From contig JAFQOR010000021.1 of NCBI GenBank assembly GCA_017403125.1, positions 1 through 38,680 of the forward strand: a stretch of DNA of 38,680 nt. Direction: 5' to 3'. The position numbers and the translations under genes are program-made. The notes under the pieces were generated by a model, which saw only the letters and a program-made list of their open reading frames with translations, ran no database searches and was not told the origin of the DNA. Shown here in pieces: positions 6,572 through 19,307 of this stretch. The first letter of the stretch is position 1. Each line of letters begins with the position of its first letter. Source of the DNA: Alistipes sp. (GTDB lineage Bacteria; Bacteroidota; Bacteroidia; Bacteroidales; Rikenellaceae).

Positions 6572-6579
6572 TACTTTTG
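6572..6579 (+). promoter_or_regulatory. putative -7 box of the NRPS operon
   Basis: TACTTTTG matches TAnnTTTG in a very AT-rich stretch, 75 bases before the NRPS ATG. A TTTG at 6556-6559 is too close to serve as -33. The resulting leader of about 70 bases contains a small hairpin (GCTCATTT with AAATGGGC near 6589-6608). The 195 bases from 6460 hold no other feature. Confidence 0.45.
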
Positions 6580-6654: not shown

Positions 6655-9600
6655 ATGAGCAACAACCCAAAATCTACGCACCTATCGCAATCGCAGATGG
6701 GTATATATGTAGAGTCGATACAGCATCCAAACGAGTTGGTATATCACATGCCGTTTCTTTATACGCTCAACAAAGCGATAGACCTCGAACGCCTGCGAAA
6801 TGCATTATACAAGGTTATAGCTGCTCATCCGGCGTTCTACTCCTACTACACGACCGACGAGAGTGGCGAGCCGCTGATAGTTGAGCGCCGTGATTTGCCT
6901 ATTGTCATCGACATAGAGAGTGTGGATGACATGGAGGCTGTAAAGCATAGCATAGCCCAGCGTTTCGATCTTGCCGATAGTCGCCCAATAAAGATTGCGT
7001 TGTATGCCGGCAAGGAGCATAACTATATGCTCTTTGAGGTGCATCATATAGTCTGTGACGGAGCATCATCAAGTGTGCTTATGGCGGAGATAGACCGTGC
7101 CTACCGTGGTGAGGAGATAGAACCGGAGGACTATACGTTATACGACGCGACGCAGGAGGAGTTGCAACTGCGTGCCGGAAGCGAAGAGTATGATGCGGCG
7201 CGCAAGTGGTATGAGGAGAATTTTAATGTTGGCGATGTAGATACACAGATTATCCCCGACCGCAACGACAAGGAGCATAGGGTAGTACATGCGGAGTATA
7301 ACCTGACAATTGATGTCGCCAATATTCGCAAACTCATGGAGAGTGCAGGTGTGAAGGCGGGAACGCTCTTTACGTCGGTATATGCACTCGTTATGTCGAA
7401 GTTTACGGGTGACGATCAGGTGTTGTTCTCGACGATATGGCATGGTAGAGACGATAAGCGCATGGCGCGCACGGCGGGCATGTTCGTAAAGACGTTGCCC
7501 GTGTATTATGCATTAAATAGCGAAATGACTCTTGCCGAGTTGTTTGCACATGGCGATAAGATTATCAGAGGTGCGCGTCAGCACAGCATATTCTCGTATG
7601 CCGATGCCAATACGGCGTTGGGCATAAAGTCGAACTCGCTGTTTGTATATCAAGGCTATCTGTTCAATAATTTGGCGATAGATGGTCATCCGATGACGAT
7701 GGAGGACTTGGAGGAGAGTGCTACGACAGAGCCCCTTTCGATGCAGATATACCAGGAGCGTGACGGTAGTTATCGTGCTGTGGTGGAGTACTTCTCGCAT
7801 ATCTACTCCGAGGAGCTAATCGGACAGTTTGTTGAGAGCTATGAGGCGGTACTCAACTCTATGTGTGATGGGGCGCAGAGCATTGGCGACTTGTCGTTTG
7901 TGACACCCAGGCAGGAGGCGTTGCTCGATTCGTTCAACGACACGGAGCGCGACTACGATACGACGCAGACGATACTCTCGTACTTTGCAAAGCACGTTGC
8001 GGAGAATCCTACACAACCTGCTGTGGTGTATAAAGATAGAAGCTACACCTATCGCGAGGTGGATGAGTTGTCGAACAAGATTGCCCACCGCCTACACAAT
8101 GCAGGGTTGGGTAAGGGAGATGTTGTGGCCGTGCTCATCCCGCGCTCGGAGTGGATGATGATTGCATCGTTGGGCGTGCTGAAAGCGGGGTGTGGGTACG
8201 AGCCTCTTGATCCGAGCTATCCGCGCGAGCGCCTGCAATTTATGACCCAAGATGCCGGTGTGCGTATGATTATTGGCGACGAGGTTCTTGTAGCGGAGAT
8301 GGAGTTGGGTATCGACAATGTGTTGTTTACGAAAGATATAGCATCACTCGATGAGCCTGCGACAGCTGTGGGTGTTGAGGTGCGCCCCGAAGACCTATTT
8401 ATCATGCTATATACCTCCGGCTCGACAGGTGTGCCCAAGGGTTGTATGATTGAGCATCGCAACGTTTTGGCATTTGCTATGTCGCATAGCCAGATTTGTG
8501 ATATAACATCAGCATCGCGCGTTGCGGCATACGCAAGTTATGGTTTCGATGCGTCGTTGATGGATATCTACGGCACGATTGTGGGAGGTGGTACGCTTCA
8601 TATTATTGCCGAGGAGATTCGCCTCGACTTTGTAGCGCTGAACGACTATTTCCTTACGAATCGCATAACTACTTCGTTTATGACCACGCAAGTGGGATTC
8701 CAGTTTGCTACGGCGTGCGAGAGTCCCTACTTGAAGACGTTGATGGTTGGTGGCGAGAAACTTGCCCCAATCGAGCCGCCAAAGGGCTTCAAATTGTTTA
8801 ATGCCTATGGCCCTACGGAGTGCTGTGTATATACAAATGTATATCATGTGGCGGAGTACGAGGATAACATTCCCATTGGTAAGGCACTTCCAAATATCAA
8901 ACTCTATGTGGTGGACCCCAATGGCAAGCGTCTGCCGGCAGGTGCCGTGGGCGAGCTGTGGGTGGCAGGACATCAGGTATCGCGCGGATACCTAAATCGT
9001 GAGGAGCAGATGGCAAAGGTCTTTACTCCAAATCCGTTCTGCAACGATGTGGCGTATAATCGCGTATATCATACGGGTGATATTGTGCGCTACTTGACAG
9101 ATGGCAATATTCAGTTTGTGGGTCGTCGTGATGGTCAGGTCAAGATTCGTGGCTTCCGTATCGAACTGAAAGAGATCGAGGCAATTATTCGCCAGTATCC
9201 CGACATTCGCGATGTTACGGTGCAGGCGTTCGATGAGGAGAGTGGTGGAAAGTTTGTTGGCGCATACATCGTAAGCGATAAGGAGATTGATATCAAGGCT
9301 CTCAATGATTTTATACTCGAAGAGAAGCCGCCATATATGGTGCCTGCTGTAACCATGCAGATTGAGCGCATACCGCTCACGCAAAATCATAAGGTCGATA
9401 AGCGTGCATTGCCGAAGCCCGAACGTAAGGCCGAGAGCCTCGAAGTGGAGAGTAATGTGCCTATGAATCTACTCGAAAAGGAACTACACGCCATAATCGC
9501 GGGGGTTGTGAATACCGAGCAGTTTGGTGTTACAACGCCGTTGGCGTATGTGGGTCTTACCTCCATTGCATCAATTAAACTTACGACACAGATATACAAG

Positions 9601-12600
9601 CGCTATGGTGTGGCTCTCGACAGCAAATCGCTGTTGAAGGGCGGTACGTTACAGAGTATCGAGAACGCCATCCTCGATCATCTGCTTTCGGCGGATACGG
9701 CTACGACTGTAACAGGTGCCGATGGTAGGGACGAGGCTGTCGATAGCGTGCCGTTGAGCTATGCCCAGATGGGTGTGTATTACGAGTGCATGAAGCGACC
9801 GCTCGATACGACGTATAATATTCCGTATAGTCTGCACCTCCCCTCGGGTACCGATGTCGAAAGACTTAAGAAGGCTATCAGAAGCCTTGTGGCTATGCAT
9901 CCCGAATTGGATGTATGTTTCGAGTCGAACGAAGATGGTGTGGTACAGCGACGAGGCAACTATGGCGAGGCGGCTGTTGAACATGTGCGCACCTCGGATG
10001 CGGAGTTGCAGATGCTCAAAGAGGGCTTTGTGCAACCCTTCCATCTCGCCAAGGAGCCGCTCTATCGCTTCGCTATTGTCGAGACCGAGAGCGGCGTGCA
10101 TCTACTTGTCGATATACATCACCTTGTTGCCGATGGTTACTCACTCGATCTATTCAATCGCCAGCTGTGTGCGTTGCTCGATGGAGGGAGTGTCGAGGCA
10201 GAAGGCTGCGACTATATGAGTTTTGTCGCCGAGCAGCAACGCAACGAGAGCGGCGAGGAGTTTGCTGCGGCAAAGAGATTCTTCGATGAGGCTCTTGCCG
10301 AGTGTGAGGGTTGTAGCGAGTTGCCTGCCGATTTCAAGGGCGACGAGAGTAACGGACGCTCACAGCGCATAGTCCTTCCCTTTGATTTCGAGCGCGTGGA
10401 GCGATTTAGCCGTGAGGTGGGTGTCACACCGGCACATACGATGCTTGCTGTGGCGAACTATACGCTTTCGCGTTATACAAACAACCGCCATATATATATT
10501 GCTACGGTAAGTAACGGACGCTCGAATCTTCGCGTTGCCGATACGGTTGGTATGTTCGTAAATACGTTGGCACTGCACGCCCACATCGAGGAGCAGACTG
10601 TCGAGAAGTTTGTGCGCACCGTAAGCGAGAATTTCGATGGTGCAATACGCAACGAGAACTACCCATTTGCCCGCATAGCAACCGACTATAACTTTGCGTT
10701 TGCAACCAACTATGCCTACCAGATTGGAGTGATGACGGAGTATAGCGTAGATGGTAAGAGTGTGGCCATGGGCGAGCTGAAACTCGACGTGCCGAAGCAG
10801 AAACTCGACATAATGATTACGGAGGTCGATGGTCGTGCCGTGATTCAGCTTCAATACAACGATGCCGTATATCAAGAGGAGAGTATTCGTCGCTTTGGCG
10901 AATCGATGTTGGCGGTGCTCGATGGCTTTATGGCGGATAGGGCAGCAAGCCTTCTCAAAATATCGATGATTGGCGACAAGGCAGAAAGGGAGTTGGCGTC
11001 GTTGCGTGCGGGAGATTCGGGCAAAGCGCTGTTCTATCTGTTCCACAAGGCAGTGGAGCACTGGGCAGATAATCAGCCCGAGGAGGAGGCTCTTATCGCC
11101 GTAGATTGCAGCTACAACTACGCAGATATGAACATGGAGATGAATCGCATCGCACATGCACTTATTAGGCGCGGTGTGGAGGTGGGTAGTCGTGTGGCTC
11201 TCTTGTTACCACGTACCAGCCGACTGATACTCTCGATGTTTGGCGTGATGAAGGCTGGCGCTGCCTATATCCCATGTGACCCCGACTACCCGGCAGAGCG
11301 CGTAAAACTTATCTTGGAGGATTCGGGTGCCGACTTTGTTATTACCACCTCGGAGCATCTTGCAGAGTTTGCGGATGGTCGCGCTCTCGATGTCGAGGAG
11401 TTGTTGCGAGAGAGGCGTTGCGATAATCCCGATGTGGGGGTTACGCCCGATAGTTTGGCTTATCTTATCTATACGTCTGGCTCGACGGGACGCCCCAAGG
11501 GTGTGATGCTGCACCACAAAGGTATATGTAACTACTTGTATGGTCATCCTGCAAATGTCTTTGCAAATGCTGTTATGACCGATGCATACCGTCTGTTGAG
11601 TGTTACGACAATCTCGTTCGATGCCGCATTGCAGGATATAGGTATGTCGATGTATAATGGTAAAACTCTTATCCTTGCGACCGAGGAGCAGGCAAATAAC
11701 CCCATCGAGCTGGCATCGCTTATCAACGACTTGAAGATAGATATGGTTTCGGGAACACCTTCTCGTTGGCAGACATGGCTCACAAGCGATGATTTTGTGC
11801 GTGCTATTTCGAATATTCGTATTGTGCGTGCAGGTGGCGAGAAGTTCTCGATGCAGCTGCTCGAACAATTCAAGGCAATAACCACTGCACGTATCTTCAA
11901 CTGCTATGGCCCTACCGAGATTACCGTTGCATCGAACAATGCCGAGCTTACCAATGCCGAGATGGTGACAGTAGGTCGCCCGCAGTTCAATGTGCGTGAG
12001 TTTATTGTTGATCAGGATGGTAACGAGTTGCCTGTTGGCGTTGTTGGCGAACTATATATCGGTGGTATGGGAGTAGCGAAGGGTTATAACAACCTCGACG
12101 AGATGACGCGCGAACGCTTTATCGAATATCATGGCGAGCGTGTCTATCGTTCGGGCGATTATGCCAAGTGGTTGGCTGATGGTCGTGTAGTGATTCTTGG
12201 TCGTACCGATAATCAGATAAAACTGCGCGGATTGCGCATAGAACTTGGTGAGATAGAGAGCGTTATGCAGTGTGTGGAGGGCATAGACAAGGTTGTAATC
12301 CTTATCCGTAAGATAGGAGGCAAGGAGCACCTTTCGGCATACTATACGGCAAATCGAGATATAGACCCTGCGGATCTCAAAGCCGAAATATCGAAGAGTT
12401 TGACGCAATATATGGTGCCTACGGCATATCTGCAACTTCCCTCAATGCCTATGACCCCCAATGGCAAGACCGATATCAAGGCGTTGCCCGAGCCTGAACT
12501 CTCGGCAAGTAGTGCCTACGAGGAGCCGGCGAATGATGTAGAGCGTGCGTTCTGCGAAATCTTTGCTTCTATATTGCAACTCGATAGGGTAGGCGCTGCC

Positions 12601-13965
12601 GACAACTTCTTTGAGTTGGGTGGCACGTCGCTCGTTGTTACGCGCGTAATTATCGAGGCGGATAAGGCGGGCCTGCACGTAAGCTATGGTGATGTATTTG
12701 CTAACCCGACACCGCGCAAGCTCGCTCGCCTGCATACATCGTCGGATGACGATAATTTGCTCGACCCCACAATTGTCGATTACGACTATACGGCAATAAA
12801 CGATACGCTTGCTGCCAACAACCTCGATGCCTTCAATCGTGGTGCAAGACAGAAGTTAGGTAACGTGTTGCTTACGGGAGCTACGGGGTATCTCGGAATA
12901 CATATTTTGCGTGAGTTGGTTGCGTCGGATGCCGAGAAGATATACTGCTTGGTGCGCGGCAAGAGTATCGCATCGGCACAGAGTCGCCTTAAAACAATGC
13001 TCTTCTACTACTTTGACTCTACGTTTGAGAATATCATGGGCGACCGCCTGAATATCGTTCTTGGTGACGTCACAGATGACCTTGCGTCGCTGCTCGACGG
13101 AGTCAAGATCGATACCATCTTCAACTGTGCTGCCATTGTTAAACACTTTGCCGAGGGAACCGAAATCGAGGATGTAAACATTGGTGGTGCGGAGCGATGT
13201 GTGCAGTATTGCTTGCAGCACGATGCACGCCTTGTGCATATCTCTACTGCCAGCACACGCGGTTTGAGCATCAACGATGTGCCTGCACCGACACAGGTGT
13301 TCAACGAGCAGACGTTGTATTTAGGTCAGTATCTTGGTAACAAGTATATCTACTCGAAGTATATAGCCGAGCGAATAATTCTCGAAGCTGTGGCTATGCG
13401 TGGACTTGGAGCCAAGATTATGCGTGTGGGTAACCTTGCTGCGCGCTCGACAGATGGCGAGTTCCAGGCAAACTTTGCTACGAATAGCTTTATGGGACGC
13501 ATAAAGGTGTTCAATATGTTGGGATGCTGCCCGCACGAGATGCGAGATAATGCAGTTGAGTTTTCGCCTATTAACGAGGTGTCGCGTGCCATAGTTCTCT
13601 TGGCGCATACTCCGAAGGAGTGCTGTGTATTCCACCCCTACAATAACCACGCTGTGCTCTTTGGCGATGTTCTCTCGGAGCTCGAATGTGTGGGAGGTGG
13701 CGTAGAGTTCGTCGATGGCGAGGAGTTCGCAAGTCGCATGGAGAGTGCAAAGGCTGACCCGGACAAGGCGCGTGAGCTATCGAGCCTATTGGCATATCAG
13801 GATATGGCTCATGGTCGCAAGACCTCGGATGTCACACGTCAGAATATCTATACGATGCAGGTGCTCTATCGCTTGGGATACAAGTGGTCACACACTACGT
13901 GGGATTATATCGAACGCTTCTTGAAAGCTATTGCCGGCATGGGTTTCTTTGATGCCAAAAACTAA
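6655..13965 (+). CDS. two-module nonribosomal peptide synthetase with terminal reductase (C-A-T-C-A-T-R)
   Basis: A 2436-residue cytosolic megaenzyme. Module 1: condensation domain 1-425 with intact HHIVCDG (130-136); adenylation 440-920 with LYTSGSTGVPKG and NAYGPTE; carrier 935-1012 with serine S970 in an unusual GLTSI context. Module 2: condensation 1032-1430 with HHLVADG (1155-1161); adenylation 1455-1945 with YTSGSTGRPKG and NCYGPTE; carrier 1958-2030 with S1992 in LGGTSL. Residues 2066-2436 are a thioester reductase: TGATGYLG nucleotide-binding loop at 2074-2081 and a catalytic Y2231/K2235 pair. The reductase releases the product as an aldehyde. A condensation domain ahead of the first adenylation domain suggests an N-acyl cap. 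There is no epimerase or thioesterase. The gene is intact and is followed 12 bases later by a MATE exporter. Confidence 0.95.
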   Translation: MSNNPKSTHLSQSQMGIYVESIQHPNELVYHMPFLYTLNKAIDLERLRNALYKVIAAHPAFYSYYTTDESGEPLIVERRDLPIVIDIESVDDMEAVKHSIAQRFDLADSRPIKIALYAGKEHNYMLFEVHHIVCDGASSSVLMAEIDRAYRGEEIEPEDYTLYDATQEELQLRAGSEEYDAARKWYEENFNVGDVDTQIIPDRNDKEHRVVHAEYNLTIDVANIRKLMESAGVKAGTLFTSVYALVMSKFTGDDQVLFSTIWHGRDDKRMARTAGMFVKTLPVYYALNSEMTLAELFAHGDKIIRGARQHSIFSYADANTALGIKSNSLFVYQGYLFNNLAIDGHPMTMEDLEESATTEPLSMQIYQERDGSYRAVVEYFSHIYSEELIGQFVESYEAVLNSMCDGAQSIGDLSFVTPRQEALLDSFNDTERDYDTTQTILSYFAKHVAENPTQPAVVYKDRSYTYREVDELSNKIAHRLHNAGLGKGDVVAVLIPRSEWMMIASLGVLKAGCGYEPLDPSYPRERLQFMTQDAGVRMIIGDEVLVAEMELGIDNVLFTKDIASLDEPATAVGVEVRPEDLFIMLYTSGSTGVPKGCMIEHRNVLAFAMSHSQICDITSASRVAAYASYGFDASLMDIYGTIVGGGTLHIIAEEIRLDFVALNDYFLTNRITTSFMTTQVGFQFATACESPYLKTLMVGGEKLAPIEPPKGFKLFNAYGPTECCVYTNVYHVAEYEDNIPIGKALPNIKLYVVDPNGKRLPAGAVGELWVAGHQVSRGYLNREEQMAKVFTPNPFCNDVAYNRVYHTGDIVRYLTDGNIQFVGRRDGQVKIRGFRIELKEIEAIIRQYPDIRDVTVQAFDEESGGKFVGAYIVSDKEIDIKALNDFILEEKPPYMVPAVTMQIERIPLTQNHKVDKRALPKPERKAESLEVESNVPMNLLEKELHAIIAGVVNTEQFGVTTPLAYVGLTSIASIKLTTQIYKRYGVALDSKSLLKGGTLQSIENAILDHLLSADTATTVTGADGRDEAVDSVPLSYAQMGVYYECMKRPLDTTYNIPYSLHLPSGTDVERLKKAIRSLVAMHPELDVCFESNEDGVVQRRGNYGEAAVEHVRTSDAELQMLKEGFVQPFHLAKEPLYRFAIVETESGVHLLVDIHHLVADGYSLDLFNRQLCALLDGGSVEAEGCDYMSFVAEQQRNESGEEFAAAKRFFDEALAECEGCSELPADFKGDESNGRSQRIVLPFDFERVERFSREVGVTPAHTMLAVANYTLSRYTNNRHIYIATVSNGRSNLRVADTVGMFVNTLALHAHIEEQTVEKFVRTVSENFDGAIRNENYPFARIATDYNFAFATNYAYQIGVMTEYSVDGKSVAMGELKLDVPKQKLDIMITEVDGRAVIQLQYNDAVYQEESIRRFGESMLAVLDGFMADRAASLLKISMIGDKAERELASLRAGDSGKALFYLFHKAVEHWADNQPEEEALIAVDCSYNYADMNMEMNRIAHALIRRGVEVGSRVALLLPRTSRLILSMFGVMKAGAAYIPCDPDYPAERVKLILEDSGADFVITTSEHLAEFADGRALDVEELLRERRCDNPDVGVTPDSLAYLIYTSGSTGRPKGVMLHHKGICNYLYGHPANVFANAVMTDAYRLLSVTTISFDAALQDIGMSMYNGKTLILATEEQANNPIELASLINDLKIDMVSGTPSRWQTWLTSDDFVRAISNIRIVRAGGEKFSMQLLEQFKAITTARIFNCYGPTEITVASNNAELTNAEMVTVGRPQFNVREFIVDQDGNELPVGVVGELYIGGMGVAKGYNNLDEMTRERFIEYHGERVYRSGDYAKWLADGRVVILGRTDNQIKLRGLRIELGEIESVMQCVEGIDKVVILIRKIGGKEHLSAYYTANRDIDPADLKAEISKSLTQYMVPTAYLQLPSMPMTPNGKTDIKALPEPELSASSAYEEPANDVERAFCEIFASILQLDRVGAADNFFELGGTSLVVTRVIIEADKAGLHVSYGDVFANPTPRKLARLHTSSDDDNLLDPTIVDYDYTAINDTLAANNLDAFNRGARQKLGNVLLTGATGYLGIHILRELVASDAEKIYCLVRGKSIASAQSRLKTMLFYYFDSTFENIMGDRLNIVLGDVTDDLASLLDGVKIDTIFNCAAIVKHFAEGTEIEDVNIGGAERCVQYCLQHDARLVHISTASTRGLSINDVPAPTQVFNEQTLYLGQYLGNKYIYSKYIAERIILEAVAMRGLGAKIMRVGNLAARSTDGEFQANFATNSFMGRIKVFNMLGCCPHEMRDNAVEFSPINEVSRAIVLLAHTPKECCVFHPYNNHAVLFGDVLSELECVGGGVEFVDGEEFASRMESAKADPDKARELSSLLAYQDMAHGRKTSDVTRQNIYTMQVLYRLGYKWSHTTWDYIERFLKAIAGMGFFDAKN

Positions 13966-13977
13966 TAAGTAGGAAGA

Positions 13978-15309
13978 ATGAATATATTTGACCGCAAGGA
14001 GTTAAATACACGTTTTTGGAGATATTTGAGTTCGTCGATACTCATCACGCTCTCCGGAGCTTTGGGTGTTATCGTCGATAGCGTGATTGTGGGTCATCTT
14101 ATTGGTGGCGACGGCGTGAGTGCCATCAATCTGAATAGCACGATGATTCAGCTGCTACTGACCATTAGTCTTATAATTGCGTCGGGAGGTGGCATGATGG
14201 TGGGCTATGCTCTTGGTCGCAAGGAGTATAACCGAGCGCGATATATCTTTACGCAATCAACTCTCGGAAGCCTTGTTGTGGGTGTGCTGTTTACCGTGGT
14301 GGGTGTGCTGTTTACCGACCAAATAGCTTCGATTCTGTGTCAGAACGAGCAGCTACATGGCATGGTTAGCGACTATCTGAATGTGGTGCTGCTTGGAGCT
14401 CCGGCATATATGCTGATGTGGGGAATATCAACGATGATAAGCGTTGATGGTAGCCCCCGATTGGCATCTTTGGCAATTATAATTGATAATATCGTAAATC
14501 TCCTGCTCGACATCGTATTTATTGAGTATCTTGACATGGGCGTTGCAGGCTCGTCATTGGCAACGGTTGTTGGACATGTGGTGGGTATTGCAATCATGCT
14601 TCTGCATTTCCGTAGCCGTAGTCGTGTGCTGTCGTTGTCGTTCAAGGGTGGTAGGCTAAAAGAGTGGCGAGGTATAATTTCGCAGGGAGCACCTTTGGCT
14701 GTCGCCTCGGTATGCCTGACGTTGTTGCTCTTTACTTCGAATAAGATTGTGCTCGGAGCCGTAGGTCGAGAAGGCATCTTTGTATTCTCGGTAAGTATGA
14801 ATCTGTTGCAGGTATATAACCTATTTCTTGCCGGAACATGTCGTTCGTTGCAGACCCTTGGAGCTGTGCTCATTGGTGAGAGAAATAGCGATGGGGTGCG
14901 TTTCGTATTCGGCAAGTCCTTGAAGTTTATCACCGTAGCCATGATAGTTACGTGTGCCTATGTCTGGGTATTTCCCTCGTCGATTGCCATGTTGTTTGGC
15001 GCCGAGGGCGCAGATATTATCGCCGAGTGTAACTATGCGTTGCGAATATTTGCCGTAAGTTTCATTCCGTTCTGCTATATCTACTTCATAATGATTGTCT
15101 TCAAACTTTTGGCATTCAATCGCATGTCACTATTTATCTCGTTGTTGCTTTCGCTTACCGTGATACCGGTGATAATGCTTATGGCGCAGTATGCACCGGA
15201 GTATATATGGTATAGCTACCTTGTGGCGTATATCATCGAGATAGTTGCGATATTTATTGTCTATAAGGTTGCGCGTATGGATGTGAAGACAAGAATAGCC
15301 AACTTATAG
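13978..15309 (+). CDS. MATE-family multidrug/metabolite exporter
   Basis: A 443-residue membrane protein with about twelve hydrophobic helices in two homologous halves, as in MatE transporters (first half with VDSVIVGHLIGGDGVSAINL, the family's early motif; second half beginning near residue 230 with ISQGAPLAVASVCL). It would exchange cations for organic substrates across the inner membrane. An AGGAAG sequence lies just before the ATG, and the gap to the NRPS is only 12 bases, so the two are co-transcribed and it is the natural exporter for the peptide product. The length is normal. It converges with the PPTase gene, and the two stop regions overlap by six bases without a terminator. Confidence 0.93.
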   Translation: MNIFDRKELNTRFWRYLSSSILITLSGALGVIVDSVIVGHLIGGDGVSAINLNSTMIQLLLTISLIIASGGGMMVGYALGRKEYNRARYIFTQSTLGSLVVGVLFTVVGVLFTDQIASILCQNEQLHGMVSDYLNVVLLGAPAYMLMWGISTMISVDGSPRLASLAIIIDNIVNLLLDIVFIEYLDMGVAGSSLATVVGHVVGIAIMLLHFRSRSRVLSLSFKGGRLKEWRGIISQGAPLAVASVCLTLLLFTSNKIVLGAVGREGIFVFSVSMNLLQVYNLFLAGTCRSLQTLGAVLIGERNSDGVRFVFGKSLKFITVAMIVTCAYVWVFPSSIAMLFGAEGADIIAECNYALRIFAVSFIPFCYIYFIMIVFKLLAFNRMSLFISLLLSLTVIPVIMLMAQYAPEYIWYSYLVAYIIEIVAIFIVYKVARMDVKTRIANL

Positions 15310-15894
15310 CGTGACGAGGCGGAACTCTTCGTGTTGCTCGGGATGTGAGTAGCACGCGGTGCAGACGTAATCTTTGCCGTGATGACGGGTGAAGGAGTAT
15401 TTGTCGATGGCCAACTGCGGGAGGTTGTCGCATAGTCCCTCACCTGTCTGTTTTAGTATGCTCTCCTTTGTGGTCCATAGCTCACAGAAGCTGCGCTCGG
15501 GGTTGGGTGACGATGCGATTGTGTGGAGTTGCTCGTTGTTCATGACGTGCCGAGCGACATCCCAATCAATCTCGGTTATAGCCTCTATATCTATGCCGAT
15601 AGGGTAGCGGCTGATAGCACAAGCCACCCCTTGCTGGCAGTGGCTCATGTTAAAGTGAATGTTTAGATGAGTTGATATATGAGGTTTGCCACCATTGCTA
15701 TAACTGAAATCTGGCGCTGTGTCTATGCCGTACTCCTGCATCAGTCCATGCTTCAACAGAAGATATGCCGCAATGCTCTGTCGTCTATCTCGCTCGAAGC
15801 GATAGCGAAGACTCCTCTCCCTACGCTCTGCCGATACCGCACGCAGTGCCATCTCGATATCGAAATCGAGAATATTTTCACATATATAAATCAT
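15304..15894 (-). CDS. 4'-phosphopantetheinyl transferase, Sfp type
   Basis: A 196-residue enzyme that moves phosphopantetheine from coenzyme A to carrier-domain serines. The signature is present: IGIDIEAI with metal ligands D102 and E104, then W140 and K143-E144...K148 in WTTKESILKQTGEG. Length and spacing fit Sfp-type enzymes (short form, near 200 residues) rather than AcpS. Upstream, FSYSNGGKPHI and FNMSHC match the substrate-binding region (usual forms NxxGKP and FNLSH). The gene lies opposite the NRPS-MATE operon, so the NRPS carriers at S970 and S1992 are its likely substrates. It is the last gene of the partner-switching operon, 15 bases after the STAS gene. Confidence 0.93.
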   Translation of the reverse strand: MIYICENILDFDIEMALRAVSAERRERSLRYRFERDRRQSIAAYLLLKHGLMQEYGIDTAPDFSYSNGGKPHISTHLNIHFNMSHCQQGVACAISRYPIGIDIEAITEIDWDVARHVMNNEQLHTIASSPNPERSFCELWTTKESILKQTGEGLCDNLPQLAIDKYSFTRHHGKDYVCTACYSHPEQHEEFRLVTL

Positions 15895-15909: not shown

Positions 15910-16203
15910 CTACTCTATAAAGAGTATGCGCGAGAAGCCTGTCATGTCGAGTACGGAGCGCACTTCGGTGCATATATTGCGTAGCGTGAGACGTTGCTCT
16001 GCTGCCATAAGATGTTTGTGCGACGCGAGAATTACGCGCAGACCGGCGCTACTAACATACTCCAATGATGAGCAGTCCAAGACAACCTCCTTGGCGGTGA
16101 TGCCGTTTAACGCAGCCTCTAATTCGGGTGCAGTATTTGTGTCGAGGCGTCCAACAATCAGCACGATGCTCTGATTCTCGCAATTACGTATTGTTATCTC
16201 CAT
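15910..16203 (-). CDS. STAS-domain anti-sigma factor antagonist
   Basis: A 97-residue single STAS domain like SpoIIAA/RsbV. The phosphorylation loop is LDCSSLEYVSSAGLRVIL; the serine equivalent to the usual phosphosite is S52, although the aspartate normally before it is replaced by serine (YVSSAGL rather than MDSSGL). Unphosphorylated antagonists bind the RsbW-type kinase and free its other partner; the kinase phosphorylates them and a SpoIIE-type phosphatase resets them. All three components are adjacent here, in the order phosphatase, kinase, antagonist. Confidence 0.9.
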   Translation of the reverse strand: MEITIRNCENQSIVLIVGRLDTNTAPELEAALNGITAKEVVLDCSSLEYVSSAGLRVILASHKHLMAAEQRLTLRNICTEVRSVLDMTGFSRILFIE

Positions 16204-16207
16204 ATAT

Positions 16208-16621
16208 CTATTTGTTAATGATTTTAGTCAGTATTAAAATGTTTTTCTCGCAACGTCGGCAATACTCCACGGTGTCCATTATTTGTCGCGTGATGAATAT
16301 CCCCAAGCCTCCTATCTCGCGCTCTTCGGCAGGGAGGCTTATATCGGCATCTGCTACACTACCGGGGTCGAAGGCTACTCCGTAATCCTCGATGGTGATA
16401 ACTACGCTATGATGATTGTACTCCATGCCTATCTCGATGTCGCCACTCTCCTGTCCCGGATAGGCGTAGTGCATGATATTTACAACACTCTCTTCAATGG
16501 CGAGTTGTAGGGGCATCACCATCTCGTTGGCTATCTCGGCATCGTGCACAAACTCCTCTACGAAGCTCATAAGCCGCGGCAATTCGTAGGTGTCGTTATG
16601 TAGAGTTATCCGCCTATTCAT
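16208..16621 (-). CDS. RsbW/SpoIIAB-type serine kinase (anti-sigma factor)
   Basis: A 137-residue GHKL ATPase. The N box reads AIEESVVNIMHYAY (N48), the G1 box IEDYGVAFDP (D79) and the G2 box EIGGLGIFITRQIMD (G104-G107). This is the anti-sigma kinase fold with standard length. Such kinases phosphorylate a STAS antagonist and sequester a sigma factor or another target. No sigma factor gene is linked, so the output partner is unknown. The start overlaps the phosphatase stop by eight bases, and the STAS gene follows after four bases, so the module is translationally coupled. Confidence 0.9.
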   Translation of the reverse strand: MNRRITLHNDTYELPRLMSFVEEFVHDAEIANEMVMPLQLAIEESVVNIMHYAYPGQESGDIEIGMEYNHHSVVITIEDYGVAFDPGSVADADISLPAEEREIGGLGIFITRQIMDTVEYCRRCEKNILILTKIINK

Positions 16622-18578
16622 CTTTGTTATACGTGAGTTTTATGTCGAGTATAGCTATGTCGTCACTCTGCTCGCATCCTTGACCATAATTGCCAATCTC
16701 TTCGAAAAGAGCATTCACCACATTGCACGGCTGTTGCTCGTGGCGGTGAGCGAGGAACGCCAATAATCGCTCTTCGCCATAGAGCTTGCCACATGCATTT
16801 TGTGCCTCGGTAATACCATCGGTATATAGCAATATGTGCGAGCCTTGATTAAGGTGATATTGGCCACCGACAAAGTCGAAATCGTCGATGACTCCCAATG
16901 CGATATTGGTCTCGATGTTGAGTGCTTGGGGCTCGATGTTGTTGCCGAATATTATTGGATGGTTATGTCCTGCGTTGGCGTAGTTGAGCGTTCCCTCTTC
17001 TATATCGAGCACACCCACAAATGCTGTGCAGAACATGTTCCTTTCGTTGTTCTCGGCAAGCACTCTGTTTAGCATTGCCATGATGTCGGCAGGCGATGCT
17101 TGTGCACTTGCTACCGTACGGAACATGCGGCATATTACGGCCATAAGCATAGCTGCGGGCACGCCTTTGCCCGATACGTCGCCTATGATAAAGTAGAGTT
17201 TGCCATCCTTTACGAAGTAGTTGTAGAGGTCGCCTCCAACCTCCTTGGCTGCAACAAGATGAGAAGCAAGCTCAATTGATGCTACATGTTGGGCTATGCT
17301 CTTGTCTTTGGGTAACATTCCGAGTTGTATGTCGCGAGCCACGCGCAACTCCGATGCCATGCGCTCCTTTTGTGCTGTTGTCGAGCGTAGCTCGTCGATG
17401 TAGTTGATAAGCGAAAGGCGCATCTCCTCGAACGCATCGCGAAGTTGTCGCATCTCGTCCCTGCCGCTAACCCTTGGTGTGTTATTATCGAAGTTGCCGG
17501 TGGCAATATTGGCCGCAGCCGCCGTGAGTCGTTTCAATGGACGTGTCAGGCGGCGAATGGTGATGTGGCAGAGTAGTACAATAAGTACGGTGCCAATGAC
17601 AAATATTGCAATGATGGTGTCGCGCAGGCTATATACGCCGCCAAAGATGTCGATATAGCGACATGCTACGGCTATTGACCAACCGGTGTTGGCAACGGGG
17701 GCATAGAGGACGTAGTACTCTGTGTCGTTACGCTCATAGACGCAAACTCCGCGCTCCATGGCTATCATCCTATTGGCAATATCGATAAGTTGTGGCTCGT
17801 TGAATCGTATGGCATTCTCGAATATCGTCTCCGTGAATATCGCCTCGAAGCGCGAGTGGGCAAGGAAGGCTCCTTGACGCGATAGCATGAAGTTATAGAC
17901 ATCGGGAAAGGGCTTTATTGCCCTTACCTGTTCGGCAAATTGCTCGATGGAGATGTCGGCGGTGAATATAGCATATATCTCACCGGAGTCGTTGCGTATG
18001 GGGTAGGAGTAGGTGGCAAGAAAGGTCTCGGCACCGTCGATGTCATAGTAGGGTTCACTCCAATAGGGTGCACAACTCTCATAAGGCACGCTATACCACT
18101 CCATGTTGTGATAGTCATAGCTCTCGGAGCCGAGTTGCTTGCATGCAATTTCTTCACCTTGTCGATAGGAATACGGAGCGAAATATTCGCCCTTGTCTGT
18201 GTAGAAATTGGGAGCAAAGGCTATGGCAGAACCCACGATGCCGGGGTTGTTTGTGAGTAGCTGATGTGTTATGTCGTACATCGCATCGGCATTTTGCACC
18301 ATTTCGCCAATCATTGGCGAGATACTCTCTACCGCAGTCTCTACATCTTGCAATATGGTATTTATTTGCAGTATCGTATTATCGAGTGATGCCTGTGCAT
18401 GATCAACAACCTCGTTCTGTACATGTCGGCTTGCTGTGCGATATGTCACCACGAGAGTAATGACGAATATGAATGTTGTGATAAGCAGAATGTAGAGGCT
18501 CAAACGTAGCGAAAAGGAGCTCCGAAAGAGCCCTACTATACCTTTGGTCTTATTTCCTGCCTTCATAATACGCACCAC
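16614..18578 (-). CDS. membrane sensor phosphatase (dCache-HAMP-SpoIIE)
   Basis: A 654-residue inner-membrane protein. Helix 1 is at about 27-46, helix 2 at about 322-340, and the 275 residues between form a periplasmic dCache-like sensor (EWYSVPYES, WSEPYYDIDGAETFLATYSYPI). A HAMP linker follows (about 340-393), then a short coiled coil and a PP2C-like SpoIIE domain from 410, with metal-binding aspartates in GGDLYNY (D450) and GDVSGKG (D467), and NAGHNHP. SpoIIE-type phosphatases dephosphorylate STAS antagonists. Here the sensor would detect a small extracellular molecule and switch the downstream kinase/STAS pair. An internal Met at residue 5 (18566) is an alternative start. The ligand is unknown. 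Confidence 0.93.
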   Translation of the reverse strand: MVRIMKAGNKTKGIVGLFRSSFSLRLSLYILLITTFIFVITLVVTYRTASRHVQNEVVDHAQASLDNTILQINTILQDVETAVESISPMIGEMVQNADAMYDITHQLLTNNPGIVGSAIAFAPNFYTDKGEYFAPYSYRQGEEIACKQLGSESYDYHNMEWYSVPYESCAPYWSEPYYDIDGAETFLATYSYPIRNDSGEIYAIFTADISIEQFAEQVRAIKPFPDVYNFMLSRQGAFLAHSRFEAIFTETIFENAIRFNEPQLIDIANRMIAMERGVCVYERNDTEYYVLYAPVANTGWSIAVACRYIDIFGGVYSLRDTIIAIFVIGTVLIVLLCHITIRRLTRPLKRLTAAAANIATGNFDNNTPRVSGRDEMRQLRDAFEEMRLSLINYIDELRSTTAQKERMASELRVARDIQLGMLPKDKSIAQHVASIELASHLVAAKEVGGDLYNYFVKDGKLYFIIGDVSGKGVPAAMLMAVICRMFRTVASAQASPADIMAMLNRVLAENNERNMFCTAFVGVLDIEEGTLNYANAGHNHPIIFGNNIEPQALNIETNIALGVIDDFDFVGGQYHLNQGSHILLYTDGITEAQNACGKLYGEERLLAFLAHRHEQQPCNVVNALFEEIGNYGQGCEQSDDIAILDIKLTYNKDE

Positions 18579-18584
18579 TTAATA

Positions 18585-19307
18585 CTACCACTCATCCTCT
18601 TGCGTGTCAGCCTCGAAGAGCACGAAGGTAGTGGTAAAGTTGTAATCCAGAAAATCGACAAGACGGAAGTATCGGTAGCCGCCTGCCTTGTCACTATATG
18701 GGTATAGTAGATTGGCTATGGGGGCATATGCCTTTTCGGTTGATAGTGATAAGGCATATATTCCCAGCGACCCACCTCGCGAAGCCTTGTACTGTATGTT
18801 GGATACCGAAATCTTGTAACGTCCTTCTCTAAATTCGTAGGTTACGATGCCCTTCCAATGAGCATGTTTTATGCCCCATGGGCGCCCCAACTCATCGCGT
18901 ATGAACCCATGTTCGATTATGCCTCCAACAATCTTGTTATCCGACTCATGTATAATGCTCGCCATGCGTTTGCGTGCCGCCATCATTAACTCCTCGCGTG
19001 GTGCGTCACTCTCCACAATGCGCTCCCACACGATGTTGCCCTCGCCTACGAGCTTAATGCTATGTTGTATGTTGTCGCGATAGAAGTCGGCCTCTTGCGA
19101 GTGGTCGTGGCGCATACCATTGCCAAAGTGTTTGCGGAAAGCCTTGCGACCAAATCTATCTTGCCACTCGTCGCGTGTGAGCCAGTTGCCGTTCTCGTCG
19201 GAGAAGTAGAATACCTCGTTTCTATCTTTCAGCACCTCATACTCTTGGGCATGACTCGACACCGCGCCAAGAAGCATGATTACGGTGATTGCTATGTATC
19301 TGTTCAT
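18585..19307 (-). CDS. exported hypothetical protein, possibly DUF4468-like
   Basis: A 240-residue protein with a signal peptide (MNRYIAITVIMLLGAVSSHA, cleavage before Q21). The rest is a mixed alpha/beta soluble protein; residues about 85-180 (VWERIVESDAPREEL, KRMASIIHESDNKIVGGIIE, TYEFREGRYKISVSNIQY) recall the DUF4468 TBP-like fold common in Bacteroidales, but the match is from memory. It is the first gene of the partner-switching operon, six bases before the sensor phosphatase, so a role as a periplasmic accessory or ligand-binding partner of the dCache domain is plausible. Confidence 0.8.
   Translation of the reverse strand: MNRYIAITVIMLLGAVSSHAQEYEVLKDRNEVFYFSDENGNWLTRDEWQDRFGRKAFRKHFGNGMRHDHSQEADFYRDNIQHSIKLVGEGNIVWERIVESDAPREELMMAARKRMASIIHESDNKIVGGIIEHGFIRDELGRPWGIKHAHWKGIVTYEFREGRYKISVSNIQYKASRGGSLGIYALSLSTEKAYAPIANLLYPYSDKAGGYRYFRLVDFLDYNFTTTFVLFEADTQEDEW

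What the first reader, a model, noticed from the sequence alone, without database searches (positions are those of the whole stretch)
6655..13965. Compact two-module NRPS ending in a reductase, predicted to make an N-capped dipeptide aldehyde
The domain order C-A-T-C-A-T-R is complete, with active-site residues present in all seven domains (HHxxxDG in both C domains, carrier serines S970 and S1992, and reductase TGATGYLG with Y2231/K2235). R-terminated dimodular synthetases from gut bacteria are known to release dipeptide aldehydes that inhibit proteases or cyclise to pyrazinones. A condensation domain in front of module 1 implies an acyl cap, which would block cyclisation to a pyrazinone and keep the aldehyde reactive. 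The exact product cannot be read from the sequence.
Basis: partly seen in the sequence, partly recalled or inferred. Interest (0 to 1): 0.78.

Follow-up and report, generated by a model that had tools for sequence, protein, structure and literature searches.

The report
Gut peptide-aldehyde synthetase with regulatory switch
A gut Bacteroidales bacterium carries a complete enzyme assembly line that probably makes a small capped peptide aldehyde (a likely protease inhibitor); it sits with its own activating enzyme, an exporter and a phosphorylation switch, in a cluster type already described in a rumen methane-producing archaeon.

Summary
In detail: one intact 2,436-aa NRPS (6655-13965, +), C-A-T-C-A-T-R, with the reported active-site residues. 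Its two C domains are the only ones found in the 1.84-Mb, 88%-complete genome.

The aldehyde is well supported. The cap is plausible but unproven. For: C1 is intact and conserved, and its counterpart in one relative (G531) follows an in-cis A-T loader lacking the amino-acid-binding Asp. Against: C1 resembles LCL/DCL domains more than solved starter domains, an elongating C domain (G520) falls in its clade, and no loader was found in this genome.

Much the same gene set was described in Methanobrevibacter ruminantium (PMC2812497), so this is a new member of a known kind. New here: partner-switch genes lie in the NRPS cluster in 8 of 11 related genomes (2 of the other 3 seen from one side only) and in 0 of 7 distant ones; in 3 of the 11 the exporter is fused to an RsbW-like kinase domain.

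The parts
6655..13965 (+). NRPS, 2,436 aa, C-A-T-C-A-T-R
6676..7962 (+). C1 condensation domain, HHIVCDG; proposed to take an acyl donor
7966..9429 (+). A1 adenylation domain, specificity residues DAMFMGAVY (aliphatic residue suggested from recalled patterns, unproven)
9466..9678 (+). T1 carrier domain, Ser970
9751..11016 (+). C2 condensation domain, HHLVADG; forms the peptide bond
11041..12501 (+). A2 adenylation domain, specificity residues DAQSRGCVA, identical in window, G081, G022, SIG104 and G621, different in G531; substrate not assignable
12532..12738 (+). T2 carrier domain, Ser1992
12850..13944 (+). R thioester reductase domain, TGATGYLG, Y2231/K2235
13978..15309 (+). MATE exporter, 12 bases after the NRPS stop; in the cluster in 8 of 11 related genomes (not seen in G520, G295, G502)
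15304..15894 (-). 4'-phosphopantetheinyl transferase, nearest NCBIfam model AusB (92.8 bits, cut-off 225)
15910..16203 (-). STAS anti-sigma-antagonist-like protein, SSAG motif
16208..16621 (-). RsbW/SpoIIAB-like kinase (HATPase_c_2), conserved Asn-box and DxG-type motifs (roles recalled)
16614..18578 (-). dCache-HAMP-SpoIIE (PP2C-type) sensor phosphatase
18585..19307 (-). Conserved protein of unknown function, N-terminus looks like a signal peptide; next to the phosphatase gene also in G081, G022, G063
6572..6579 (+). TACTTTTG, fits the Bacteroidetes -7 element TAnnTTTG (consensus recalled); no well-spaced -33 TTTG seen by eye
   Evidence: read

Best explanation
The locus is a complete pathway for a short reactive peptide. 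The adjacent PPTase activates the two carrier domains. C1 joins a carboxylic-acid (acyl) donor, delivered in trans, to residue 1, probably an aliphatic amino acid on T1. C2 joins this to residue 2 on T2. The NAD(P)H-dependent R domain releases the chain as an aldehyde; with a capped amine it cannot close to a pyrazinone. The MATE protein exports it. A membrane phosphatase with a dCache sensor sets the phosphorylation of the STAS protein against the RsbW-like kinase, and this partner switch tunes production or export to an outside signal. Shown: domains, motifs, gene order, conservation, fusions in relatives. Inferred: chemistry, cap, substrates, export, regulation. The likely activity is inhibition of cysteine or serine proteases.
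For: All seven domains are intact and conserved. Best solved matches of T2-R are NRPS R-domain chains. In G531 a 49%-identical NRPS has an in-cis A0-T0 before C1, with no Asp in the A0 motif (AAPFYFIAG); G003 carries a separate A-T-TE protein of the same kind right after its NRPS. Window C1 and G531 C1 fall in one 7-row clade apart from the window's C2 clade in three trees (98/95; 95/92; 99/97). Related set: 11 genomes whose C domains fall in one clade (100/99, 100/100, 100/100). A partner-switch gene lies in the cluster in 8 of 11 (G000, G081, G022, G531, G621, G520, G003, G666) and in 0 of 7 genomes outside that clade (G209, G269, G319, G496, G690, G706, G827; 16-20 kb each). The PPTase lies in the cluster in 7 of 11 (not SIG104, G666, G295, G502). 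MATE-HATPase fusions in 3 of 11. In 393 order genomes the G003 fusion query hit 3 at E<=1e-40: G000, G531, G621, all carriers. Precedents, passages read: capped dipeptide aldehydes from a Clostridium cluster and Ruminococcus (PMC8518294, PMC12327764).
Against: C1 profile scores: BacC 139.8, PvdL 130.2, TycC 128.1, LgrA 118.2, against 39.5 (CDA) and 36.1 (7c1k) for acyl-accepting starter domains. G520's second, elongating C domain falls in the C1 clade, and the N-terminal C of G003 in the C2 clade, so clade alone does not give the donor. The G520 N-terminal C has SHIVLDG, not HHxxxDG. No A-T loader was found in the window genome: three other AMP-binding frames, two of them scanned and without a carrier domain, the third not scanned. 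SIG104 keeps NRPS and MATE without PPTase or partner-switch genes beside them; its one SpoIIE match is an 808-aa frame at 47% on another contig. G295 and G502 (same genus) show no MATE, PPTase or partner-switch gene, though their NRPS gene runs off the contig so only the downstream side is seen. G063 keeps the PPTase/partner-switch operon with no NRPS or MATE on its 13.8-kb contig. SpoIIE relatives are common: 181 of 393 order genomes at E<=1e-20. No expression or product data.
Confidence: 0.5

Rival explanations
1. C1 is silent or only structural. The synthetase starts at A1 and releases an uncapped dipeptide aldehyde that closes to an imine and oxidises to a pyrazinone, as AusA does.
For: C1 is not starter-like by profile; no acyl loader found in the genome; the best-scoring NCBIfam models for synthetase and PPTase are AusA and AusB. 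The AusA model is 2,373 positions long although the paper names six domains A-T-C-A-T-R (PMC12153313, passages), so extra N-terminal length may not mean a cap; what that extra length is was not tested.
Against: C1 keeps HHxxxDG and is conserved like the other domains in the closest orthologues; its counterpart in G531 is fed by an acid-type A-T; AusA and AusB cut-offs are far from met.
Confidence: 0.25
2. C1 takes an aminoacyl or peptidyl donor from another carrier protein in trans, so the product is longer than a dipeptide.
For: C1 resembles LCL/DCL domains; G003 has a longer relative, with A-T-C-A-T-C-A at one contig end and A-T-R at another whose ends share 101 bases.
Against: No further C domain was found in the genome, though it is only 88% complete; no other A-T found among the frames looked at.
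Confidence: 0.15
3. The partner-switching genes are only neighbours and regulate something else.
For: G063 has the operon without NRPS on its contig; SIG104 has NRPS and MATE without it; none is seen downstream of the NRPS in G295 and G502; related phosphatases sit beside ABC transporter genes in three other genus members.
Against: Present in the cluster in 8 of 11 related genomes of four families, in a tight same-strand gene run in G531 and G520, and fused to the exporter in three; the methanogen cluster has similar neighbours.
Confidence: 0.33

Closest known systems
Methanobrevibacter ruminantium M1 NRPS mru0068 cluster (PMC2812497, passages read)
   Same: Two modules, each C-A-T; terminal domain called thioesterase in the text and thioester reductase in its Figure S8 legend; beside two serine phosphatases, an anti-sigma-factor antagonist and a MatE exporter; the authors also suggest N-acylation and sensing.
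   Different: Archaeal host; PPTase, kinase and an acyltransferase are described in a separate locus there, while in the window the PPTase and kinase are in the cluster. The mru0068 sequence itself was not reached.
Gut N-acyl dipeptide aldehyde clusters (Clostridium BGC0001686, octanoyl-Met-Phe-H; ruminopeptin from Ruminococcus bromii)
   Same: Gut NRPS clusters whose reported products are N-acylated dipeptide aldehydes (PMC8518294, PMC12327764, passages).
   Different: Other phylum; sequences not reached here, so homology was not tested; whether they have partner-switch neighbours was not looked at.
Staphylococcus aureus AusAB (aureusimines; PMC12153313, passages)
   Same: Dimodular, R-terminated, own PPTase; AusA and AusB are the best-scoring NCBIfam models for the two window proteins.
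   Different: Scores below both cut-offs (1125.9 against 2500; 92.8 against 225). AusA is described as A-T-C-A-T-R with uncapped pyrazinone products.
Rsb/SpoIIAB-type partner-switching modules
   Same: PP2C-type phosphatase, HATPase_c_2 kinase and STAS protein encoded together.
   Different: No sigma factor target looked for or known; in three relatives a kinase domain is fused to the exporter.

Membership tests
Dimodular NRPS-R of the mru0068 / gut peptide-aldehyde kind | C-A-T-C-A-T-R on one chain with active-site motifs | tested here: met
Dimodular NRPS-R of the mru0068 / gut peptide-aldehyde kind | MatE exporter adjacent | tested here: met
   13978-15309
Dimodular NRPS-R of the mru0068 / gut peptide-aldehyde kind | Serine phosphatase and anti-sigma-antagonist genes nearby | tested here: met
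   15910-18578
Dimodular NRPS-R of the mru0068 / gut peptide-aldehyde kind | Sequence kinship to the archaeal enzyme | tested here: inconclusive
   Best T-R match is 6vtj (330 bits); that 6vtj is the M. ruminantium protein is recalled, the output only says non-ribosomal peptide synthetase
Dimodular NRPS-R of the mru0068 / gut peptide-aldehyde kind | Product is an N-acyl dipeptide aldehyde | not testable with these tools
   needs chemistry
AusA (NF047350) | Curated equivalog cut-off 2500 bits | tested here: not met
   1125.9 bits
AusB (NF047349) | Curated equivalog cut-off 225 bits | tested here: not met
   92.8 bits
Starter C domains | First C domain of the assembly line, catalytic motif intact | tested here: met
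Starter C domains | Sequence nearest to known starter C domains | tested here: not met
   LCL/DCL structures score far higher than CDA-C1 and 7c1k; only solved structures were compared
Starter C domains | Acylates the first amino acid | not testable with these tools
   indirect support only: acid-type A0-T0 before G531 C1
Partner-switching module | PP2C phosphatase, HATPase_c_2 kinase with ATP-binding motifs, STAS protein with the phosphorylatable Ser motif, encoded together | tested here: met
   (motif roles recalled)
Partner-switching module | Cognate sigma factor or other target | not tested
   no target searched for

The most novel reading that the evidence does not exclude
A family of Bacteroidales (and methanogen) peptide-aldehyde pathways carries its own partner switch, in which an RsbW-like kinase works on or at the exporter: in three relatives (G003, G531, G666) the MATE protein ends in a kinase domain. 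The pathway could sense outside conditions, or its own exported product, through the dCache phosphatase and set synthesis or export by phosphorylating STAS, without any sigma factor.
Probability: 0.28. Interest if true: 0.65.

Novelty: new member of a known kind. Interest (0 to 1): 0.42.

Why it matters
Peptide aldehydes of gut microbes inhibit proteases, and how their production is controlled is a question I found little about in the papers seen. This locus joins a Bacteroidales lineage to a cluster type reported from a rumen methanogen. It also points to a testable control layer: a sensor phosphatase, a kinase and a STAS protein that usually travel with the synthetase and, in three relatives, a kinase domain built into the exporter. 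The in-cis acid-type loader of G531 gives a handle on what the first condensation domain accepts.

Tried and rejected
Considered and rejected: chance ORF or pseudogene (orthologues at 80-84%, pN well below pS); membership in the AusA equivalog (cut-off not met); classical starter C by sequence; assigning the A2 substrate from DAQSRGCVA (no match I could verify; Arg at position 299 might suit an acidic side chain, speculation only); loss of C1 function (motif and conservation speak against it).

Firmicutes and archaeal reference genomes were not reached: the 'of' option needs a genome handle, and the single genome-contig scan returned 10 loci, of which 3 were full-length kin, labelled Lentimicrobiaceae, Rikenellaceae and Alistipes (both families are in Bacteroidales). 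Plasmid searches gave only matches under 60% identity. The AusA characterisation paper is not held. Literature: no paper held all of partner switching, Bacteroidetes, SpoIIE, anti-sigma; only PMC2812497 held three of anti-sigma factor antagonist, nonribosomal peptide, phosphopantetheinyl transferase, serine phosphatase; none held three of MatE, RsbW, nonribosomal peptide, HATPase as whole words. These cover only the open-access library.

Rows dropped before counts: A-domain pieces under about 300 aa; C-domain pieces of 250 aa or less (so the cut C of G295 was left out, and put in only); three long-branch rows (G209_C2, Mycetohab_C1, L015_C1); G666 is in the tree but not. Surroundings of a second, frame-broken NRPS piece in G621 (L019) were not examined.

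Full report
What is there. The window is a whole contig (G000:C19, 38,680 bases) of a 1.84-Mb genome in 31 contigs, 88% complete. The finding is real: one 2,436-aa frame, 6655-13965 (+), with Pfam matches for two condensation, two adenylation, two carrier and one reductase domain. HMMs built here give C(8-436)-A(438-925)-T(938-1008)-C(1033-1454)-A(1463-1949)-T(1960-2028)-R(2066-2430). HHIVCDG (130), HHLVADG (1155), TGATGYLG (2074) and Y2231/K2235 are present; S970 and S1992 are invariant in the alignment with G081 and G022. These two C domains are the only ones found in the genome.

The cluster. Directly downstream are a MATE exporter (13978-15309) and, converging on it, a run of minus-strand genes: PPTase (15304-15894), STAS protein (15910-16203), RsbW-like kinase (16208-16621), dCache-HAMP-SpoIIE phosphatase (16614-18578) and a protein of unknown function (18585-19307). 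The PPTase scores best with the AusB model (92.8 bits, cut-off 225) and the NRPS with the AusA model (1125.9, cut-off 2500): nearest named kin, not members.

Relatives. In the window's family, 5 of 268 genomes match the NRPS at E<=1e-100: four of the same genus (G000, G003, G022, G081) and G209 at 26%. In an even sample of the order, 9 of 393 match at E<=1e-150, and in a sample of the phylum 4 of 247; these counts include the window. Families of G531 and G621: 1 of 7 and 2 of 15. Both family names belong to Bacteroidales. For G081 and G022, pN is 0.05-0.16 and pS 0.61-0.77 in all seven domains, C1 included.

Does C1 add a cap? For: the HHxxxDG motif is intact in window, G081, G022, SIG104, G621 and G531. 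In G531 an A0-T0 pair precedes C1 in the same chain. In the A0 motif the Asp that binds the alpha-amino group (numbering from GrsA, recalled) is absent (AAPFYFIAG), and so it is in a separate A-T-TE protein right after the G003 NRPS (ASPFYF); by solved-structure search both are ordinary members of the adenylating superfamily, nearest to amino-acid-activating NRPS domains. C1 of window and G531 fall in one 7-row clade, apart from the window's C2 clade (98/95; 95/92; 99/97). C1 is the least conserved domain towards G621 (36%, against 50% for C2, 74% for A2 and 67% for R), as if the cap changes while the peptide stays. Against: the C1-clade profile scores LCL/DCL structures at 118-140 bits and the starters CDA and 7c1k at 39.5 and 36.1; Rausch et al. 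describe starters as a separate group (PMC1894796, passages). G520 C2 lies inside the C1 clade and the G003 N-terminal C in the C2 clade. The G520 N-terminal C reads SHIVLDG. No loader was found in this genome. I put the cap at about 0.6.

Residues. A1 reads DAMFMGAVY, A2 DAQSRGCVA, the latter identical in window, G081, G022, SIG104 and G621. A1 suggests an aliphatic residue (recalled pattern); A2 I cannot assign.

The partner switch. I call related the 11 genomes whose C domains fall in one well-supported clade. Partner-switch genes lie in the NRPS cluster in 8 of 11: window, G081, G022 (phosphatase, kinase, STAS); G531 (phosphatase-kinase fusion, STAS, and a MATE-kinase fusion); G621 (kinase and STAS at a contig edge); G520 (STAS, phosphatase-kinase fusion); G003 (phosphatase-STAS in front of an NRPS start on one contig, MATE-kinase fusion behind the NRPS end on another); G666 (MATE-kinase fusion; 8.4-kb contig). 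The other three: SIG104 has none beside its NRPS and MATE; G295 and G502, of one genus, show none, nor MATE or PPTase, downstream of an NRPS that runs off the contig. Outside the clade: 0 of 7 (G209, G269, G319, G496, G690, G706, G827; 16-20 kb each), with a PPTase alone in G319. In G531 and G520 the genes follow the NRPS on its strand within a few tens of bases, apart from a gap of about 110 bases before the G520 phosphatase frame as called. Background: a phosphatase match at E<=1e-40 exists in 11 of 268 family genomes, including the four NRPS carriers of the genus, and a match at E<=1e-20 in 181 of 393 order genomes, so presence alone says little; adjacency and fusion carry the argument. Other genus members keep a longer (787-795 aa) phosphatase of this kind, in three of four cases beside ABC transporter genes, and G063 keeps the PPTase operon without NRPS on its contig.

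The exporter-kinase fusion. G003 (569 aa), G531 (605-aa frame) and G666 (607-aa frame) encode MatE followed by HATPase_c_2, both above the Pfam cut-offs, with Asn-box and DDG motifs kept in G003 and G531. Searched in 393 order genomes, the G003 fusion hit 3 at E<=1e-40: G531 along nearly the whole length, G621 and the window over the MATE part only. The window MATE has no kinase domain.

What is known. The M. ruminantium genome paper describes mru0068 with two C-A-T modules, flanking serine phosphatases, an anti-sigma antagonist and a MatE exporter, and a second locus with PPTase, acyltransferase, phosphatase, antagonist and kinase, and already suggests N-acylation and sensing (PMC2812497, passages). 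Rumen genomes hold thousands of NRPS clusters, with some archaeal-bacterial similarity (PMC8241843, passages). Capped dipeptide aldehydes of gut bacteria are known (PMC8518294, PMC12327764, passages). So the window is a new member of a known kind; the linkage across Bacteroidales families and the exporter-kinase fusion are the parts I found no print for (searches, open-access library only).

Verdict. Observation right; interpretation partly supported; the more interesting part lies next door. Interest 0.42.

Noticed in passing
L022:6540-8249 (+), L106:1492-3306 (-), L120:3463-5283 (+): MATE exporters with a C-terminal RsbW-like HATPase_c_2 domain, each in an NRPS cluster.
   Followed up: partly
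L064:4072-8038 (-), genome G063: PPTase, STAS, kinase, phosphatase and the unknown protein at 53-69% identity to the window genes, without NRPS or MATE on a 13.8-kb contig.
   Followed up: partly
L065, L066, L067, L068: A longer SpoIIE-type phosphatase (787-795 aa, perhaps with a kinase part, not scanned) with STAS genes, beside ABC transporter genes in three of these four (NMT1/THI5-like protein, ATPase and permease confirmed by Pfam in L065 only; none seen in L068).
   Followed up: no
L120:5280-8418 (+): The G666 NRPS frame is interrupted by one in-frame TAG; decay or assembly error cannot be told apart.
   Followed up: no
L019 (G621:C115): A second NRPS piece in G621 (A-T-C-A, then T and R parts in changing frames), its C domain in the C2 clade.
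   Followed up: no
L028:15900-17707 (-): Acid-type A-T loader fused in front of a C-A-T-C-A-T-R synthetase in G531.
   Followed up: yes
window:2423-3136 (+): Short protein with a carboxypeptidase-regulatory-like domain that matches only the start of SusC/RagA; a 24%-identical protein in G090 also lies beside a matching response regulator/histidine kinase pair.
   Followed up: no
window:3302-4084 (+): PadR-type regulator followed by a small protein with a sub-threshold 2TM match, upstream of the NRPS; no relative of either was hit in the G081 and G022 stretches searched.
   Followed up: no
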